The notes under the pieces: generated by a model
Seen by the model: the letters and a program-made list of their open reading frames with translations, nothing else
Database searches by the model: none
Told to the model about the DNA's origin: nothing
Shown here: positions 3,032 through 63,855 of the stretch, piece by piece
Position numbering within the stretch: the stretch's first letter is position 1
How the letters are laid out: every line of letters begins with the position of its first letter
Origin: an uncultured Aeriscardovia sp.
GTDB taxonomy: Bacteria; Actinomycetota; Actinomycetes; Actinomycetales; Bifidobacteriaceae
Reading direction: 5' to 3'
DNA: 64,000 bases
NCBI GenBank assembly: GCA_903789525.1
Contig: CAIFER010000001.1
Span: 930,001-994,000 of the forward strand
Made by a program: the position numbers and the translations under genes

Positions 3032-4513
3032 TTATGAGATACGAGGTCCAGATAACGCGACTGAGCAGCTGACTGTGAGTGCAGTCATGCGCTCCAAACG
3101 ACGATCAGGCGCATTCCATGTGTTCGTCCCACCGCGGCTCGTCCACCCTGAATAGTTCGCACCGATCGCCTTCACATGCCCGAGAACGCGCAGTGACCCG
3201 TCCCGGTCGTCGGTTTCGACACTGTCCCACGCGATCGGAAGATCGGCCCGAGATCCGTTCGAGAGCACGCAGCGAACCATCGGATATGCGCTGGCAGCCT
3301 CGCTGAGAAGACGATCGTGGTCGCCTTTCTGATCCTCCGTTCTGATCGCCTGAATTGTGCCCAAGGAAAGGGGCTCGCCGATTTCCGGGATCCCCTGATC
3401 TGCGCGGGCGGCGAATCCAATTGCATCTGCTGCTCGAACGCGATCGTACTCCGTCCGCGTCAGCGGCAGGACGACCCCGTGCTTCGTGTGGGCAGCCATA
3501 TGGAAGTGAGAAAGCTGATCGGCGCTGAGATAGTGCCAGCCGGAATCGAGATCGTCACTAACAAGCGGACGGTAGCCGATCGATGGGATGACATCGACGA
3601 ACAGCATCCACTGCCTGCCTCCATGCTCGGCAAAGACAGCTGGACCTTCAACTCCGCCGGGATTGCCGTTGACCGCATACTTGGCACCGATTTTCTCCTG
3701 TACGTCATGCCACTGGGATGACTCCCACCACCGCTGATCGTCAGTCGACTGCATGCGGATTCCCCGGCCAAACGAGTTGTCCTTATAGATACGGTACGTG
3801 CGCATCGCGGGGGAATTTGCTGAGGAAGAACCGGATGCGAGAGGACGGCGCACGATCGTGCAGTCGATCGTCTCTCCACCGTCGTCGATGAAGACTCCAC
3901 CCAGCTTGAACGTCGCAGGAGTGAAGTCGGTCGTCGTTGCCCACATCAAACGGCTGTATGGGTTTCCGTTATGCCGGCGAGTACCCGGGTTCATAAGGTC
4001 AGCCGAGAAGATGACCACGAATCCGCCTCTGCCCTTCCCGTACAAGTCAGGTTCCCACGTAGCAACCGGAGCCCACGCCATACCGAGGTTCGCGCGGCTG
4101 CCGTCTTCGCGGATACTCGCGTCCAGGTACTCCGGCTTCCCCCAGTCGATCAGATCGCGCGAGCGCCAGACGATCAGCTTCGTCGATCCGCAGTGCGACC
4201 AGTACGTCCAGCCGGTCAGATTGTCCGGATTGCGTGGCGTTCCAGCCGTGCTAGTGCCATCGTCTCCCCCGAAGACGCGCAGATCCGTGGCGACGATGAA
4301 GTACTCTCCGGTCTGCGGGTTTCTGCAGATGCAGGGGTCACGGATTCCAGTCGTGGACTGTGCCGATGCGAGAACCGGACGTCCTGCGTTGAGCCGATCC
4401 CAGCGCGTGGGGTCATTCCCATGGCTAATGTCCAAATAGAGCTTTTCCGCGTAACCGCGCGCGTTTTCGATGAAGTGCGCCAAAAGGTAGCCGTACGGCT
4501 GATCCATAGTCAT
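3032..4513 (-). CDS. Glycoside hydrolase family 43-like protein (putative arabinosidase/xylosidase)
   Basis: TTGIRDPCICRNPQTGEYFIVATDL five-bladed propeller signature; sits in an arabinan island. Confidence 0.8.
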   Translation of the reverse strand: MTMDQPYGYLLAHFIENARGYAEKLYLDISHGNDPTRWDRLNAGRPVLASAQSTTGIRDPCICRNPQTGEYFIVATDLRVFGGDDGTSTAGTPRNPDNLTGWTYWSHCGSTKLIVWRSRDLIDWGKPEYLDASIREDGSRANLGMAWAPVATWEPDLYGKGRGGFVVIFSADLMNPGTRRHNGNPYSRLMWATTTDFTPATFKLGGVFIDDGGETIDCTIVRRPLASGSSSANSPAMRTYRIYKDNSFGRGIRMQSTDDQRWWESSQWHDVQEKIGAKYAVNGNPGGVEGPAVFAEHGGRQWMLFVDVIPSIGYRPLVSDDLDSGWHYLSADQLSHFHMAAHTKHGVVLPLTRTEYDRVRAADAIGFAARADQGIPEIGEPLSLGTIQAIRTEDQKGDHDRLLSEAASAYPMVRCVLSNGSRADLPIAWDSVETDDRDGSLRVLGHVKAIGANYSGWTSRGGTNTWNAPDRRLERMTALTVSCSVALSGPRIS

Positions 4514-4525
4514 CTCCTGTGATGA

Positions 4526-4539
4526 TGTGACCGTTCACA
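4526..4539. promoter_or_regulatory. Putative LacI-type operator TGTGACCGTTCACA
   Basis: Near-perfect inverted repeat just upstream of the GH43 start at 4513; related to GTGAACGTTCAC upstream of GH51. Confidence 0.5.
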
Positions 4540-4544
4540 ATCAT

Positions 4545-5143
4545 TGTGGCACAGATGATGGCGACAGGTCCACCCTCGTATCAGCCAGCGCGATGAGGTC
4601 TGCATCGTGTGTGGCCGTGATCACACATGTGCCGTAATCGGCAGCCGACCGCAGGAGGTCGTAAACCTTTCTCCGATGGGATAGCTGGAGCAGTCTTCGC
4701 GTCCGGAGATCCACTGTTCGACCCCGTCATCGTGTTTGAGACCGTGTACGACAGTGCTGCGGCTCCCCGCCGTGCCGAGATCTGCGAAACAGGTTTCAGT
4801 CCAATCCATGCGCCCACGTGACCGCGCTTCCCAAGAGAGCCAACGCGCACAGAACCAGCGGCACAATGCTGATAACCAACCAGATTTTTGGTAATGAATG
4901 AGGATGAAAACTATTTTTCGTCGGCCATTTCCATCCCCTCAAATGAGACATCATTCGTTTAAACCACGAATTATCCGGATTATCAGAACGTTGATTAACA
5001 GATTGATCTGGACTATTTATTTCTGCCGTTTCCGACATCGTATCCATAATTTTCCGTGTCTCATCGTGTTCCATCGTTATCGCACTATACACCGGATCAG
5101 AAATGAAAATAGGAGCCCATAAATTAACGATTCCCTTGTTCAA
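4545..5143 (-). pseudogene. Degraded membrane protein / ABC transporter ATPase C-terminal remnant
   Basis: ORF 4796-5143 encodes a TM segment (PKIWLVISIVPLVLCALALLGSAVTWAHGLD). Downstream in another frame: RRKVYDLLRSAADYGTCVITATHDADLIALADTRVDLSPSSVPQ*, resembling the H-loop end of LolD-type ATPases; no intact ORF. Confidence 0.4.
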
Positions 5144-36226: not shown

Positions 36227-37357
36227 GTGAGAGGGGAAGCAATGGCGGATCAGACAGATCGCGCACATCTTTCAGATCAAGTGAACCGGTCGGTGAACCG
36301 TGATCACACGATCACCGCAGAAGTCAATCAGGCGAATGTCGCCGTGCTGATCCCTTGTTACAACGAATCTGTCACCATCTCGAAGGTCGTCAAGGACTTT
36401 CAGCGTGTGCTTCCCCATGCCACAATTTACGTCTACGACAACAATTCCACCGACGGCACCGCTGATCTTGCTCGCCGTGCTGGAGCCGTTGTCCGCAGCG
36501 AGCCACGGCAAGGCAAAGGCAACGTCATTCGCGCGATGTTCCAAGACATCGATGCGGACGCGTACGTGATGGTTGACGGCGACGACACGTACCCTGCTGA
36601 AGCTGCACCAGCCATGATCGAACGCGTGCTCCACGGTTACGACATGGTGATCGGCGACCGACTTTCGTCCACCTATTTCACTGAAAACAAGCGTCCCTTC
36701 CACAATGCAGGAAATGTGCTCGTCCGTGGTGCCATCAATCATCTGTTCCACGCGCACATCACCGATATCATGACCGGTTACCGCGCTATGAGCTTCAGTT
36801 TCGTGAAAACGTACCCGGCACTCTCTCGCGGCTTTGAACTTGAAACCGAAATGACGATTCACGCGCTCGATAAAAACGTCAAAATCACGTCATTGCCCGT
36901 CAACTACCGTGATCGACCGAAAGGTTCCTACTCCAAGCTCAATACGGTCGGAGACGGCATGCGTGTCTTGGGCACGATTGGACGCATGATTCGCGAATAC
37001 AAGCCACTGCCATTCTTTAGCTGGCTGGGCGGCATCATTGGCGTCATCGGCCTCGGATTCATGATTTCTGTCTTCGTTGACTTTTGGAAGACCCACGAAG
37101 TACAGCGATTCCCGACACTCTTTTGCGCAATCTTTATGATCTTGACCGGACTGCTCTTCTTCATTTCCGGCCTCATTTTGGACGTGATCGCCAAACGAGA
37201 CCGGAAAGATTTCACGTTCCAGTCAAATCTGATTGATTATGAGCGCCGATCGCGAGCACCTCGGAGCACGAGCTCCAGCCAATCGACGCGATCTAGCCAA
37301 TCCAGCGCTGCGCAGTCGTCCGATTTGCTCTCCACGCACGCACATTCGTCCCATTAG
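36227..37357 (+). CDS. Glycosyltransferase family 2 (polyprenyl-phosphate GT type)
   Basis: VAVLIPCYNESVTISKVVKDFQRVLPHATIYVYDNNSTDGTADLARRAGAVVRSEPRQGKGNVIRAMF. Confidence 0.9.
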   Translation: MRGEAMADQTDRAHLSDQVNRSVNRDHTITAEVNQANVAVLIPCYNESVTISKVVKDFQRVLPHATIYVYDNNSTDGTADLARRAGAVVRSEPRQGKGNVIRAMFQDIDADAYVMVDGDDTYPAEAAPAMIERVLHGYDMVIGDRLSSTYFTENKRPFHNAGNVLVRGAINHLFHAHITDIMTGYRAMSFSFVKTYPALSRGFELETEMTIHALDKNVKITSLPVNYRDRPKGSYSKLNTVGDGMRVLGTIGRMIREYKPLPFFSWLGGIIGVIGLGFMISVFVDFWKTHEVQRFPTLFCAIFMILTGLLFFISGLILDVIAKRDRKDFTFQSNLIDYERRSRAPRSTSSSQSTRSSQSSAAQSSDLLSTHAHSSH

Positions 37358-40300
37358 CCATACGGTTCGAATCGACATCGACGACAAAGTCAGGATCGAC
37401 AGCCGAATGCAACACAAATGAATTACCGGTACGAACGGCAACCCACCGCTGAGCACGCGTGCCATTCGACGCAAACTGCCGAATATTCTGCCCATCAGCA
37501 GCACGTCCACTGTCCAAATCCAGGACCTTACCCGTTGCTGCGTTCGTCAGAATGACGTATCCGTTCCGATCGTGGCTGACGACCCACAACTGAGCAGCCG
37601 TCCCATTGGATCGATAAATCTGTACATTTGCGCCGTCAACAGCAGAAGCACCTTTGACATCCAGGGCAAATTCACGATCAGAAGCGCTGAAGAGTCGATG
37701 CGGACCATCCGACAAATCACGACGATGAGCTAGCGCGAGGAGATCTGCCGCTTGAGTGCCGATAGCAGGCGGCTGCGCAATCAGATGCTGACCGTCTGTA
37801 TCATTGAGCTTCCACGCCCGCACGTGCGTTCCATTCGCCATCCGATCCGAGTCGATATCGAGTGCGAAACCCGGATCAACTGCAGAATGGAACGTCAACT
37901 TCGTCCCTGAGCGCTCAACAATCCAGCGTTGAGCCCACGTATTATTCGCCTGCCACAAGTCGATGGCACGCCCTTGCTCAGCACGCGCACCAGAAAGATC
38001 GAGAACTTTCCCGGTTTCCACTTGCGTCAGCGTGACATATCCGACATCGTCATGGGTGACGTTCCACAGCTGGCCTTCCGTCCCATCCTGACTGGCCAGT
38101 TGCACACGAGAACCGCTTCCTGCCAACGCAAAGGATGAGTTACGTGCTGCAGCAAATCGGTATGTGCCGTCCTTGAGAGCAGAGCGATTAGCAGACGCGA
38201 GACGGTCGATAATATCGCGCGTGGACGCTGCCTGAATAATTCTGAACCGCTGAGCGGGCGTGCCGTTGCCGTCGAAGAGCTGCAACTTGGCGCCGTTGTG
38301 CGCCTGACCAGATGGCACGTCGATATACCGGCCAGAATTGCGATTATAAAAGCCGACGGTTCCGTTGCCATTTCCCCGCACATACCAGTTCTGAGATTGC
38401 GTACCGTTTGGCGAATACTGCTGGATTGCAGTGCCATTGGTAGTTCCGCCGTTGCGTACATCGACCGCTTTACCAGAGTTTCGATCGAAGATGCGATACA
38501 CGCCATTGCCCACCGACTCGATCCGGTAGCGCTGAGCAGTCGTGCCGTTGGATTGGTACAGCTGAACCGGCGTGCCGTTGGACGTGCTGGCGGCCGGAAT
38601 ATCTGCGACCTGATTGGTATTGATCGTGCTCTCGATTTTGACACTCGTATTCGTTGGCACGTTGCGCACAGCTGGAACAGACGTCAGCATGAACTTTTGG
38701 TTCGCGCCGACGCCCGGATTCCACAGTTGAACCGTTGTCCCATTCGCTGTACTGCGTCCTGTCAAATCAAGAATGTAATTGCCTAAGGCAGACTGAATGA
38801 AGACAGCTCCCCCACCGGCTTGACGAACGTACCACCTTTGAGCGCGCGTACCGTTGGCCGTATACTGCTGGACTCGCTGACCGTTGCGAGCCGCAGCCGA
38901 CGGGACATCAAGCGCCTTGCCGGAATTCATATTGACGATTGTGTACGTGCCATCTGCATGGCGAGTAAACGTAAAGCGCTGAGCTCGCGTGCCATTCCCT
39001 GTATACGTGCGAACCGTCGTGCCAGCGTGAGTGCTTGCACCAGGAATCTCCACACTGGAAGAATCGGACTGGAACGAGTCGATGTAATAGTCTCCATTCG
39101 GAATTGAAGCGAGCGGGAAACTCGAGGCCTGCAGCAGCGGAGCTGCAGGGGCAACAGGACGGGCGGATCCGTAGCCGAAAGCATCCAAATCAACGCTGTG
39201 CGTCGGAAAACCGTTAATACTGCCCCGATCTGAATACTGCCAACCACGGAAATTACTGGAGAATCGCGTAAATTGCAGTCGCGATCCGTACTGAGCAACC
39301 CATGACACGTGGGAGATAATTGATGGACTGTTGAGCGTCGTATCGAGGTAAGACGTGTACGAATAGACGCCTGTATTCGTGTATCCATGCGAGCGCATTT
39401 GAGCCAGCCATGCGTTCACAATTCCCACATAAGCGCCTGTCCCCGGATGACCTGCGAAGTTCTCCAGATCAAGATAAACCGGGAATGACAACGTCGATGG
39501 CCGCACTCCGTTTTGTTGCAGGATGCGAACCGTGAAATCGGCTTCTTGACGCGCTTGAGCAGCCGTACGAGCTGTCGAATACATGTAAATGCCAAATGGA
39601 ATATGAAGCCGCTTGCACTCGGCAATATTGCGATTGACTTTCTTATCCCGGTACACGCGCCCGTAGTTGGTGCGAATGATCGCTCCCTGCACGCCTGACG
39701 ACCGCGCTGCACTCCAGTTGATATTCGACTGCCATTCTGAAACATCGACGACGCGACGAGCTTGCCGAATAACCGGCTGATTATGCGAGTTCATGAAAAC
39801 TTGTTCAGAACCGATCGAACCCCAATGAGCACCATACAGTCCAGTGAAATTCGAGATGGCGTGAGTGGAGATGTGACTTACTGACGGTGACTGTGAAAGA
39901 CGAGCACCGCGAATGAGATCAGTCCGGATACGCCCACGAACAGTTCCATCAGCTTGTTCGCGTGTTGACACCACTTCTGACGACGTTGTGACAGAGCCTT
40001 CGTGACGGGTCTGCTGTGAGCGCTGGAACGCATCCACCTCGTGCCGGGCGGTTGCAATCGGAACCGGGATAAACCGAATGCCATTTGACTTGGCGAGTGG
40101 ATCGGCCGGCAGATCTGGAGTGCCTACGATCTTCGGGTCAGTTGTGCGGCGACCGCTTTCAACGTTGTAGAGCGTACCGTCAGGAGTTTGCGCGTAGTGC
40201 GTGCCAACAACCTGAGCATCGTCAGGAATCGAAGGAGAAATCGAAGTCGGCAGCTGAGCCGCTGGATTTTCTGTAAAGTATCCGGGCTGTGCGATCGCTT

Positions 40301-40613
40301 GCTGAAAACCACTGACGTTTTGTTCGACCTGTGGTTGCTGTGGCTGCTGGGCTTGCGGAGATTGCTGCTCAGAAACTGTCGCAGAATGGTCGACAGCCTG
40401 CTCAGAGTGTATTGGCTGCGTTGATTGCGCACCATGATGCACTCGTGCTGGTGACTGCGCTTTTTGAGCAATCGGCGTCGGGCGAACAGCCGCAAACATT
40501 TGTGTTGCTTCGGTGACTAACGCCCCTGAAGCCGCAAGCGCGGTGAGAACAGCACCAGCCTTCTTCGCCTGTGCTGACCTATCAGACTTGAGAGCATGCT
40601 TTCCTCGTACCAT
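37293..40613 (-). CDS. GH25 lysozyme-like cell-wall hydrolase with multiple ricin-type beta-trefoil repeats
   Basis: RVVDVSEWQSNINWSAARSSGVQGAIIRTNYG...FPVYLDLENFAG (GH25), then repeated NGTxAQRWxV/QxxNGTxxQ lectin motifs; probable start MVRGKHALKS at 40613. Confidence 0.88.
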   Translation of the reverse strand: MVRGKHALKSDRSAQAKKAGAVLTALAASGALVTEATQMFAAVRPTPIAQKAQSPARVHHGAQSTQPIHSEQAVDHSATVSEQQSPQAQQPQQPQVEQNVSGFQQAIAQPGYFTENPAAQLPTSISPSIPDDAQVVGTHYAQTPDGTLYNVESGRRTTDPKIVGTPDLPADPLAKSNGIRFIPVPIATARHEVDAFQRSQQTRHEGSVTTSSEVVSTREQADGTVRGRIRTDLIRGARLSQSPSVSHISTHAISNFTGLYGAHWGSIGSEQVFMNSHNQPVIRQARRVVDVSEWQSNINWSAARSSGVQGAIIRTNYGRVYRDKKVNRNIAECKRLHIPFGIYMYSTARTAAQARQEADFTVRILQQNGVRPSTLSFPVYLDLENFAGHPGTGAYVGIVNAWLAQMRSHGYTNTGVYSYTSYLDTTLNSPSIISHVSWVAQYGSRLQFTRFSSNFRGWQYSDRGSINGFPTHSVDLDAFGYGSARPVAPAAPLLQASSFPLASIPNGDYYIDSFQSDSSSVEIPGASTHAGTTVRTYTGNGTRAQRFTFTRHADGTYTIVNMNSGKALDVPSAAARNGQRVQQYTANGTRAQRWYVRQAGGGAVFIQSALGNYILDLTGRSTANGTTVQLWNPGVGANQKFMLTSVPAVRNVPTNTSVKIESTINTNQVADIPAASTSNGTPVQLYQSNGTTAQRYRIESVGNGVYRIFDRNSGKAVDVRNGGTTNGTAIQQYSPNGTQSQNWYVRGNGNGTVGFYNRNSGRYIDVPSGQAHNGAKLQLFDGNGTPAQRFRIIQAASTRDIIDRLASANRSALKDGTYRFAAARNSSFALAGSGSRVQLASQDGTEGQLWNVTHDDVGYVTLTQVETGKVLDLSGARAEQGRAIDLWQANNTWAQRWIVERSGTKLTFHSAVDPGFALDIDSDRMANGTHVRAWKLNDTDGQHLIAQPPAIGTQAADLLALAHRRDLSDGPHRLFSASDREFALDVKGASAVDGANVQIYRSNGTAAQLWVVSHDRNGYVILTNAATGKVLDLDSGRAADGQNIRQFASNGTRAQRWVAVRTGNSFVLHSAVDPDFVVDVDSNRMANGTNVRAWRANRTTAQRWIG

Positions 40614-40783
40614 CGAATCCTCCAGATCGCCACGTGATCGCGTATTCACGAGTTACGCAGATACATACTTCTTCTAGATTAATTCGTCATTCTTCTGACA
40701 GGTCGAGTACAACCAGATGCGTACCAGGACTTCACATCTGAATTTGGAAGGGCTTGTGTTATAGTTTCACTGTTGATCACGTT

Positions 40784-40868
40784 GGAGGATTCGCCTAGTG
40801 GTCTATGGCGCCCGCTTGGAAAGCGAGTTGGGTGTATGCCCTCGCGAGTTCGAATCTCGCATCCTCCG
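40784..40868 (+). tRNA. tRNA-Ser (anticodon GGA)
   Basis: GGAGGAT...CTTGGAAAG...GAGTTCGAATCTC...ATCCTCC-G cloverleaf with long variable arm. Confidence 0.95.
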
Positions 40869-44305: not shown

Positions 44306-44392
44306 CCGATAATCTTGGAAGCCTAACTCGTAAATCTATCTGACTTATCTGGGCTAATAACGGTGAAATCTGTTCGAATACGCCTATATCTG

Positions 44393-44920
44393 CCTTATAT
44401 GGGGTGCGTGATCGGACGTATCTCGTTTATGTGGGGTGCGTGTGAGCGGATATCTCATCTAATTGGGGCACGTAAATGGGCATATTTCGCCTAATTAGGG
44501 CACTTTCACGCTCTTATCATTTTCAAGACCCGCATGATATCAACGATCCTGTTTCCGCTACTCTCCCCAAAGTGCCCCAATTAGCCCAGATAGGGTGTTT
44601 TTGGTTCCCAGTTAAGGCAGATTCGGTCTTCTTCTGCCGCCTAAGTAGTTCTGATGGCTTATCTGGGTAATCTCTCGCATCTAACTGGGGTCATATATAT
44701 TGCTTTTTGTCTAACTGGGGTAATCGTTTTCTCACTCGATTTCTAAGAATTGCATTATTTCAATGATCCTGTTTTTCGGCTTTCGGGAATCCACCCCAAT
44801 TAGGCGAATTGAAACCCCAGTTAGGCGAGTGAGACCTTTAAAAGACCAAAAAACAACCCCAGATAGGCATGGAAGACATATCCGACCCCAGATAAGCCAA
44901 AGGGACTCCCTTAAATAAGT
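44393..44920 (+). repeat. Composite YTAWNTGGGG repeat cluster A (units A1 ~44393-44626, A2 ~44656-44920)
   Basis: Forward motifs (TTATATGGGG, TTATGTGGGG, CTAATTGGGG, CTAACTGGGG) on the left, reverse complements (CCCCAATTAG, CCCCAGTTAG, CCCCAGATAA) on the right of cores ATCAACGATCCTGTTTCC and TTCAATGATCCTGTTTTTCGG. Confidence 0.85.
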
Positions 44921-47216: not shown

Positions 47217-48375
47217 CACGCACATATCTCTTATCTGGGGTTTCGGATCTCGTTATGTGGGGTTAAAACATGTCTTCCTCGCCTATCTGGGGTGAGGAAC
47301 TCGTCTTATTGGGGGCAGACTTTAGGGAACCGAAAAACGAGATCATTGCAACGAGTGGGATTCTGGAAATTGGGTTAGAAGATGGTGACCCCAGTTAGGC
47401 GAAGAGCAATTTCTCTGACCCCAATTAAGGACGGTAAATCACCCATTTAAGCCAACAAACCTATATGAGTGCGGAAAACCGACTGGATCTCCTCTAAGTG
47501 GGAACCAAAAACACCATATACGGCTCTCTTTGCGATCAATTGGCTCTATCTGCACACTACTGGCCCTATGTGTAGCGGAAAAATAGGAGTTCAACTAAGT
47601 AGTTCGCTTAAGTGAGTGCCCACCCGCGTTAAGTGAGCACATTTCGTGAGTGAGCAAGCGATGAGAATCGTTGGAATCACGCGGTTTCTCAAAAACGTCA
47701 GGAAAAATAGAGGACGCAGATAGACGAGAAGAAGACTCATTTAGGCGAAAAACAATATTTTCATACCCAGATAGAAGCGATATCACTCAAATAACGATGA
47801 TTCCCACTCAGATAGAGTCAATTTGACCTCAGATAAGCGAGACAGGTCCTGTAGGGAGCCCACATAGGTCAATTGTCTGAAGCGAGCGCGGGGAAAGCGA
47901 CCGTATCTCCCCTAACTGGGAACCAAAAACAACCTATATGGGCTAATCGGGGCACTTTGAGGAAAGTAGCGGAAACACAATCGTTGGAATCATGCGGGCC
48001 TCGAAAATGGTATGAGTGTGGAAGTGCCCCAATTAGACTGACTATGCCCAAATACGCACCCAATTAAGGCAGATTCAATCGCCAATCACTTCACCTAGAT
48101 GAGATAGACGCATAAGACAGCTCGCTTGACCCCCTATCTCGCTTAAGTGGATTCAATAACAGCCCTCTCAACAGGTCCGCTCGCCTAAGTGGATGGAAGG
48201 CGAGCAGAGACTAATGGCGAGGGTGAGCCAAGATCGTTGAAACAAGTGGGTTCCCGAAAATGAAAGGCGAAAACCTCGCATCCATTTAAACGCGTATAGA
48301 ATCCACTTAAGCGAGAAGCAATGTTTTTAAATCCACATAAGCGAGATTGAGGTACTTCCCTATCCAAATAAACAA
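47217..48375 (-). repeat. Composite YTAWNTGGGG repeat cluster B (units B1 ~47217-47456, B2 ~47490-47875, B3 ~47905-48075, B4 ~48134-48375)
   Basis: Four units with convergent motif arms around cores (minus strand) TTGCAATGATCTCG, TTCCAACGATTCTC, TTCCAACGATTGTG, TTTCAACGATCTTG. Confidence 0.85.
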
Positions 48376-63044: not shown

Positions 63045-63855
63045 CTATCTCGCTTATGTGGATTTTAAAATATCGCTTCTCGGTTAAGTGGGTTTCGTGC
63101 GAGTTTAAATGGATGCGAGATTGATGTCACTTGTTTTCGGAAACCCACTCGTTTCAACGATCCTGATTTGTCACGTCTTCCGGTCTCACCTTCACGTCCA
63201 TCCACTTAAGCGAGATAGCCGTCAAGAAGAGGATTTCGCGCGCCTATCTCGCGTATTTGTGTAGATAGGTGCTTGCATCCGCCTATATGGGGTGCATGTG
63301 AGCGGATATCTCATCTAATTGGGGCACACAAATGGGCATATTCCGTCTAATTGGGGCACTTTCGCGCACTCACCATCTTGAGGATCCGCGTGATTTCAAC
63401 GATCCTGTTTCCGTTCTCTTCCCTCAAGTGCCCCAATTAGTCCATATATGGTGTTTTTGGTTCCCAGTTAGAGGAGATTGAGACGGTTGACGTACGCAGA
63501 TAGGATAAGTGATCTAAATGGGAACACAATTAAAGGAGATATAGTCGCTTCCCACACCCAGATAGGATTGTTGGCTTAACTGGGTGAATTATGGCCGCTA
63601 TCTGGGGTCAGAGAAATTGCTCTTCGCCTAACTGGGGTCACCATCTTCTAACCCAATTTCCAGAATCCCACTCGTTGCAATGATCTCGTTTTTCGGTTCT
63701 CTAAAGTCTGCCCCAATAAGACGAGTTCCTCACCCCAGTTAAGCGAAGAAGACATGTTTTAGCCCCACATAACAGGACTCAAAACCCCACTTAAGCGGAG
63801 TCGAGACCATTTCAGCCCCAAATAAGCGCGACAGCCATCATCTCAATCCAAAAAT
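63045..63855 (+). repeat. Composite YTAWNTGGGG repeat cluster C (units C1 ~63045-63220, C2 ~63278-63480, C3 ~63570-63855)
   Basis: Three units with convergent arms around cores TTTCAACGATCCTGATTT, TTTCAACGATCCTGTTTCC, TTGCAATGATCTCGTTTTTCGG; C3 has about 90-100 nt identical to reverse complement of B1. Confidence 0.87.

What the first reader, a model, noticed from the sequence alone, without database searches (positions are those of the whole stretch)
63361..63427. Conserved core TTTCAAYGATCYTG in all nine units
Oriented alike, cores read: A1 CCCGCATGATATCAACGATCCTGTTTCC; A2 GAATTGCATTATTTCAATGATCCTGTTTTTCGG; B1 CCCACTCGTTGCAATGATCTCGTTTTTCGG; B2 CCGCGTGATTCCAACGATTCTC; B3 CCCGCATGATTCCAACGATTGTGTTTCC; B4 CCCACTTGTTTCAACGATCTTGG; C1 CCCACTCGTTTCAACGATCCTGATTT; C2 TCCGCGTGATTTCAACGATCCTGTTTCC; C3 CCCACTCGTTGCAATGATCTCGTTTTTCGG. 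The CAAYGAT heptamer is invariant apart from Y, while flanks differ by subtype. This suggests a recognition or functional core rather than simple sequence decay.
Basis: seen in the sequence. Interest (0 to 1): 0.75.

Follow-up and report, generated by a model that had tools for sequence, protein, structure and literature searches.

The report
Symmetric intergenic DNA repeat with core
The nine look-alike stretches belong to a large, apparently undescribed family of roughly 105-120 base-pair repeats between genes in Bifidobacterium, Actinomyces and Schaalia relatives, each a mirror-symmetric DNA site with a fixed centre and matching outer arms whose sequence changes from species to species, probably a docking site for DNA-binding proteins.

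Summary
In detail: CAAYGAT is invariant in all nine units, though the 14-mer of the title is exact in only four. In Schaalia-type genomes, units found by their outer arms alone (74 scored) all carry CAACG (1.95 bits; spacers 0.3-0.7, flanks 0.2).

The core is one part of a larger element: arm - about 35 bp - 20-bp core (AACCGCATGA|TTYCAACGWT; palindromic form AWCGTTGSAA|TTSCAACGWT) - about 35 bp - inverted arm. The arms' axis of symmetry falls on the centre of the core (65 of 74 units within 1 bp; 0 of 15 random positions); most exceptions are one helical turn off. Arm spacing is rigid: 92/93 bp in Schaalia-type, 100/101 in Actinomyces, 86/87 in the window. Arm sequence differs between species and forms classes within a genome. 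Both arms of a unit share a class, but (in one genome) match only at class-determining bases. Together with the absence of pairing around the core, this favours protein-read double-stranded DNA over RNA.

It resembles RIP/BIME-1 and REPIN repeats, but Y1/RAYT transposase is absent from the ten genomes tested. Best reading: a two-fold symmetric nucleoprotein site. The proteins and biological role are unknown.

The parts
44340..44898 (+). Cluster A: units A1 and A2 with arrays of box CCCCAVWTARGCG (left arms inverted, right arms direct)
44528..44547 (+). Unit A1 core 20-mer ACCCGCATGATATCAACGAT, axis 44537.5
44488..44504 (-). Unit A1 left inner arm
   Evidence: IR score 13, axis shift 0; box 44488
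44571..44587 (+). Unit A1 right inner arm
44748..44767 (+). Unit A2 core 20-mer AATTGCATTATTTCAATGAT
   Evidence: boxes at 44678, 44708 | 44794, 44815
47228..48343 (-). Cluster B: units B4, B3, B2, B1 in minus-strand order, with box arrays
47342..47361 (-). Unit B1 core 20-mer ATCCCACTCGTTGCAATGAT
47667..47686 (-). Unit B2 core 20-mer AACCGCGTGATTCCAACGAT
   Evidence: arms TTCGCCTAAAT/ACTTAAGCGAA, axis shift +1
47980..47999 (-). Unit B3 core 20-mer GCCCGCATGATTCCAACGAT; arms CTAATTGGGGCACT/AGTGCCCCGATTAG symmetric about its centre
   Evidence: IR score 12, axis shift 0
48233..48252 (-). Unit B4 core 20-mer AACCCACTTGTTTCAACGAT
   Evidence: arms ATCTCGCTTATGTGGATTT/GAATCCACTTAAGCGAGAT, axis shift +2, also -10
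63051..63828 (+). Cluster C: units C1, C2, C3 with box arrays
63142..63161 (+). Unit C1 core 20-mer AACCCACTCGTTTCAACGAT
   Evidence: axis shifts -10/+11
63384..63403 (+). Unit C2 core 20-mer ATCCGCGTGATTTCAACGAT, the finding itself, axis 63393.5
   Evidence: strongest symmetry at axis shift 0
63344..63361 (-). Unit C2 left inner arm (CTAATTGGGGCACTT)
63426..63443 (+). Unit C2 right inner arm (AAGTGCCCCAATTAG)
63312..63324 (-). Unit C2 left second box, symmetric with 63462-63474
   Evidence: axis (63312+63474)/2 = 63393
63462..63474 (+). Unit C2 right second box
63665..63684 (+). Unit C3 core 20-mer ATCCCACTCGTTGCAATGAT
   Evidence: axis shifts +21 and -9; inner boxes 63625/63711 at 86 bp

Best explanation
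Each unit is a two-fold symmetric double-stranded DNA docking site. SHOWN: a conserved, partly palindromic 20-bp core; inverted arms with the same symmetry axis; arm-to-arm distance fixed to about 1 bp within a genome; arm sequence particular to the lineage; arm classes matched within a unit; misplaced axes mostly shifted by one helical turn. INFERRED: a conserved dimeric protein reads CGTTG-N6-CAACG at the centre, perhaps bending the DNA. A second, fast-evolving protein (with paralogues, one per class) reads the two arms on the same face of the helix, so that the folded unit is one compact complex. The most likely role is a chromosomal protein-assembly or architectural site between genes, comparable to E. 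coli RIP/BIME-1. The role is the least certain step.
For: Axis coincidence: 65 of 74 units with arm IR>=10 are within 1 bp of the core centre, 71 of 74 within 1.5 bp of helical multiples, 0 of 15 random IRs within 1 bp. Same-axis arms in window units A1, B3, C2, B2; shifts of about one or two turns in A2, B1, C1, C3. Arms paired at 92/93 bp: 84+85, 51+56, 98+99 and 77+78 arms in four genomes, controls 0-6 per strand; 52 of 52 identified pairs at 100/101 bp in three Actinomyces genomes. Nearly every apparently lone arm checked in G586 had a partner at 92-94 bp. CAACG conserved in 74 of 74 arm-ascertained units, one base excepted. Arm classes: 71 of 78 units ACGT/ACGT or ATGC/ATGC, none ACGT/ATGC. 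In G589 positions 10-13 clearly co-vary between partner arms (0.88-1.0 observed, 0.44-0.58 expected), while most other variable positions match at or near chance, so the arms are read rather than paired. No excess pairing beside the core. Orthologous Schaalia units changed both arms together while staying in place.
Against: No binding protein was identified. The left half of the core is often not palindromic (CCGCATGA). Inverted arms could also form a stem in RNA or single-stranded DNA. Fixed-spacing, class-matched doublets with diverged spacers are also what a mobile REPIN-like unit would show. The position-by-position class test is clear in one genome (G589); G588 and G590 are smaller and weaker. 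Window boxes lie in arrays, so their helical-turn shifts are not independent.
Confidence: 0.5

Rival explanations
1. REPIN-like or MITE-like mobile unit: the arms are recognition ends for a transposase supplied in trans (one per arm class), the core is an internal site that helps synapsis, and copies are non-autonomous.
For: About 50-100 copies per Schaalia-type genome, inverted doublets at fixed spacing with diverged spacers and several classes per genome, as described for REPINs with 71- or 110-bp spacing and class-specific RAYTs (PMC3116915). Tandem 202-bp copies (G584 C1:475462-475970). A gene flanked by units is present in L164 and L159 but missing in L094.
Against: No Y1/RAYT transposase (PF01797) in ten genomes that carry units, while five control genomes were found. 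No GTAG tag noticed on the arms. No element with a gene between arms in the G586 stretches examined. Arms switched class in place at orthologous sites while the unit stayed. One core is shared by unrelated arm families in two bacterial families.
Confidence: 0.28
2. Structured RNA: the arms form a long stem and the core is a conserved apical or internal motif of a small RNA or mRNA element.
For: The arms are inverted repeats with changes on both sides, and all orientations relative to genes occur.
Against: No Rfam match. No covariation beside the core (observed 7.46, permuted 7.33 +/- 0.43). No GT-over-AC wobble bias in arms (within positions 0-11: 6 GT, 8 AC). Arms conserve sequence, not just complementarity, and in G589 match mainly at class positions. 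Axis shifts come in helical turns.
Confidence: 0.07
3. Origin-like or DnaA-linked control site: the core is an accessory element of replication origins and the other units are copies with other initiator boxes.
For: In B. tissieri and two relatives the core lies between DnaA boxes in the rpmH-dnaA region, and four more of that group have degenerate or related sequence there; a weak match in the window's genome lies in a DnaA-box cluster.
Against: Absent from the rpmH-dnaA region of the other genomes examined. The DnaA boxes are not symmetric about the core (10 versus 16 bp away). Arms elsewhere are not DnaA boxes, and up to about 100 copies per genome is unlike origins.
Confidence: 0.05

Closest known systems
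RIP / BIME-1 elements of E. coli (two REP units around a central IHF site; recalled from general knowledge, no primary paper read here)
   Same: About 100-bp intergenic repeat; two inverted species-specific units around a central protein site; tens to about 100 copies
   Different: The core is a 20-bp pseudo-palindrome, not an obvious IHF site; arm classes co-vary; spacing is fixed to about 1 bp; the core is shared across two families with unrelated arms
REPINs of Pseudomonas (PMC3116915)
   Same: Inverted doublets at fixed distance, several classes per genome, diverged spacers, intergenic
   Different: No Y1/RAYT transposase found; no GTAG tag noticed; an invariant central core; almost no lone arms in the stretches examined
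GTAG- and CGTC-tagged REPs (PMC3733652)
   Same: Short palindromic intergenic repeats; CGTC REPs also lack a transposase
   Different: Reported from other phyla (Bifidobacterium, Actinomyces and Actinobacteria are not named in the text); 20-40 bp hairpins without a core-plus-arm dyad
Tyrosine-integrase att sites (core plus arm-type sites; recalled from general knowledge)
   Same: A core with accessory arm-binding sites in fixed helical phase
   Different: Many copies per genome between ordinary genes; arms symmetric on both sides

Membership tests
REPIN | Inverted doublet of a short repeat at fixed spacing, mostly intergenic | tested here: met
   92/93 and 100/101 bp spacing; 29 of 38 units overlap called genes by less than 20%
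REPIN | Cognate RAYT/Y1 transposase encoded in the genome | tested here: not met
   PF01797 absent from 10 of 10 unit-bearing genomes, five control genomes positive
REPIN | GTAG/GTGG tag on each arm | not tested
   Read by eye only: arms such as TCGCAYGYAATTC, TGTCCRAATYSGKSACAAAS and CTAATTGGGGCAC carry none
RIP/BIME-1 | Two inverted REP-like arms around a central protein-binding site | tested here: inconclusive
   Inverted arms around a conserved core on one axis; protein binding itself untested
RIP/BIME-1 | Central site binds IHF | not testable with these tools
   Core CGTTG-N6-CAACG compared by eye with the recalled IHF consensus WATCAANNNNTTR; no clear fit
MITE | Terminal inverted repeats with target-site duplication and an autonomous partner | tested here: inconclusive
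   Arms resemble terminal repeats; no gene-bearing partner in the G586 stretches; no clean empty site found
Known Rfam RNA family | Covariance-model match | tested here: not met
   No match over any unit at the thresholds used

The most novel reading that the evidence does not exclude
A new kind of two-component chromosomal site: a core read by a protein conserved across Bifidobacteriaceae and Actinomycetaceae, plus arms read by a rapidly diversifying family of paralogous DNA-binding proteins that act only in same-class pairs, at about 20 to 100 places per genome in the richer genomes. Arm specificity appears to turn over in concert while sites stay in place.
Probability: 0.35. Interest if true: 0.85.

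Novelty: new variant of a known kind. Interest (0 to 1): 0.7.

Why it matters
This is an abundant, apparently undescribed intergenic repeat family in gut and oral actinobacteria whose geometry (1-bp rigidity, helical phasing, matched arm classes) points to protein-read DNA. It gives concrete baits (unit C2; an A. oris unit) for finding the proteins, and a natural case in which DNA-binding specificity seems to have turned over across many unlinked sites while a central site stayed constant.

Tried and rejected
Motif alone is not enriched; exact hits elsewhere in the genome are coding. Rfam: nothing. Core as hairpin loop: no covariation. Phage origin: no 20-mer in viral contigs, and 16-mer hits that look like chance; no phage similarity. 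DUF559/MTES_1575 endonuclease next to units in Schaalia: not in the window's genome. Origin element: only in the B. tissieri group. RAYT transposase: absent. Autonomous arm-flanked element: none in the stretches checked. Family-wide 2-mismatch hits include coding matches, so 105 of 189 genomes is an upper bound. The palindromic-core pattern in other families partly hits hairpins next to tRNA genes. Literature searches found no description. The gene arrangement around units rests on a rough ORF caller. One attempted computation, the per-position profile for Actinomyces units, caught only three units and was not used.

Full report
WHAT WAS CLAIMED AND WHAT IS THERE. All nine cores are present and CAAYGAT is invariant in all nine. 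The 14-mer of the title is exact in four. The heptamer alone is not over-represented in the window and exact hits elsewhere in the genome are coding; what is specific is the unit. The nine units lie in three intergenic clusters (A 44340-44898, B 47228-48343 on the minus strand, C 63051-63828), B and C sharing the subtype order I-II-III with B2 added. The surroundings include arabinose- and arabinan-related genes (GH127, an alpha-L-arabinofuranosidase, GH43, ABC transporter parts). A profile search finds no further unit in the 1.43-Mb genome.

ANATOMY IN THE WINDOW. The arms are arrays of a box with consensus CCCCAVWTARGCG, inverted on the left of the core and direct on the right. Successive boxes are often 22, 30, 32 or 42 bp apart, and the inner boxes of six of the nine units are 86 or 87 bp apart across the core. 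The best inverted repeats of A1, B3 and C2 are centred exactly on the core 20-mer and B2 is off by 1; most of the others are off by values near one or two helical turns.

RELATIVES. The profile found related cores in other genera of the family, with entirely different flanking boxes. AACCGCATGATTYCAACGWT exactly occurs in 95 stretches of 85,488 species genomes, nearly all Bifidobacterium, Actinomyces or Schaalia; single hits in other taxa look like chance, and contigs named Sanguibacter or Xylanimonas carry Schaalia-type units. A sample of 396 genomes of the class gave one hit outside the window's own genome at up to one mismatch. With two mismatches 105 of 189 family genomes are hit against one control hit, though many of those hits read as coding.

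THE ARMS SHARE THE CORE'S AXIS. Of 141 core copies, 74 have arms of IR score >=10; in 65 the axis is within 1 bp of the centre of AACCGCATGA|TTYCAACGWT and in 71 within 1.5 bp of a multiple of 10.5 bp. Of 423 random positions in the same loci 15 reach that IR score, none within 1 bp (first seen, where 75 of 142 units reached score 10 against 7 of 142 with a random right half).

UNBIASED TEST OF THE CORE. In four Schaalia-type genomes the arm TCGCAYGYAATTC occurs 84+85, 51+56, 98+99 and 77+78 times (controls 0-6 per strand), in pairs 92 or 93 bp apart. Arms without an exact partner in the listing were fetched from G586: nearly all have one at 92-94 bp, one pair is 60 bp apart and one arm is left over. 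Of 75 units found this way, 74 were scored: CAACG is conserved in all but one base of one unit. Information: CAACG 1.95 bits, core 1.33, arms about 1.0-1.4, spacers 0.32 and 0.69, flanks about 0.2. The most symmetric form is AWCGTTGSAATTSCAACGWT; Schaalia-type units also carry TTCAA-N-TTGAA on one side.

PROTEIN-READ DNA OR PAIRED STRANDS? (1) No covariation beside the core. (2) No wobble bias in arms. (3) Two arm classes coexist in Schaalia-type genomes, and 71 of 78 units have two arms of one class, none one of each. (4) In G589, the genome of locus L102 (A. glycerinitolerans), partner arms agree at positions 10-13 (0.88-1.0 against 0.44-0.58) but at positions 5, 6 and 8 agree at or near chance; positions 4 and 9 lie in between. 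Base pairing would tie all positions; reading by a class-specific protein ties only the contacted ones. The smaller sets G588 and G590 point the same way more weakly. (5) All 52 identified Actinomyces pairs are 100 or 101 bp apart.

IN PLACE OR MOBILE? Orthologous units of HPA0247 (L164) and ORNL0103 (L094) keep position and alignable sequence, yet both arms differ in class, ATGC against ACGT. That favours constraint in place. The REPIN parallel remains serious: doublets, fixed spacing and several classes are what PMC3116915 describes. But the Y1/RAYT family is absent from ten unit-bearing genomes while five control genomes were found, no arm-flanked gene was found where looked for, and I found no clean empty site. 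Only one transposase family was tested.

MECHANISM. Shown: sequence, symmetry, spacing, class matching. Inferred: a conserved dimeric protein on CGTTG-N6-CAACG, and a lineage-specific protein with paralogues on the arms, forming one symmetric folded complex. The role between genes (architecture, insulation, regulation) is a guess; the gene arrangement around units shows no strong preference (10 convergent, 18 tandem, 4 divergent).

RELATION TO KNOWN THINGS. It works like RIP/BIME-1 (arms around a protein site) and is distributed like REPINs, but fails the transposase criterion of REPINs and its core is not obviously an IHF site. The searched literature holds no description, which is not proof of absence. 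I file it as a new variant of a known kind.

Noticed in passing
G000:C1:280274-285901 and beyond (own genome, outside the window): CCCCGCATAGGCGG recurs about every 61 bp, the look of a type I-E CRISPR array of about 90 or more repeats; the likeness to the arm box is probably coincidental.
   Followed up: no
L101 (B. tissieri) 4498-4734, and the same place in G152 and G160: The core lies between DnaA boxes in the rpmH-dnaA region; G155 has a degenerate form, and G153, G156 and G157 have related palindrome-like sequence there. Not seen in the other genomes examined.
   Followed up: partly
L281, L284, L285, L287, L246 (Schaalia-type genomes): A second GC-rich interspersed repeat (GTGCCCGTGGGCGGTGGC ... 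GCCGCCGCCCACGGGCAC) lies beside many units.
   Followed up: partly
L164 4508-5867 against L094 near 3688: A gene flanked by two like-oriented units is present in HPA0247 and G587 but missing in ORNL0103, which has one unit there: recombination between units may add or remove genes.
   Followed up: partly
G584 C1:475462-475970: Three tandem copies of a unit with 202-bp period.
   Followed up: no
L046/L075 and L357, L360, L373-L375: Core-like palindromes next to tRNA genes, some followed by T runs and looking like terminators; they inflate palindrome counts in other families.
   Followed up: partly
L164 3392-4327, L106 623-1579: A DUF559/MTES_1575-type protein gene sits between units in Schaalia-type genomes; none in the window's genome.
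   Followed up: partly
window 37293-40649: A 1118-aa GH25 protein with several ricin-B-type lectin repeats, next to a predicted tRNA at 40784-40868.
   Followed up: no
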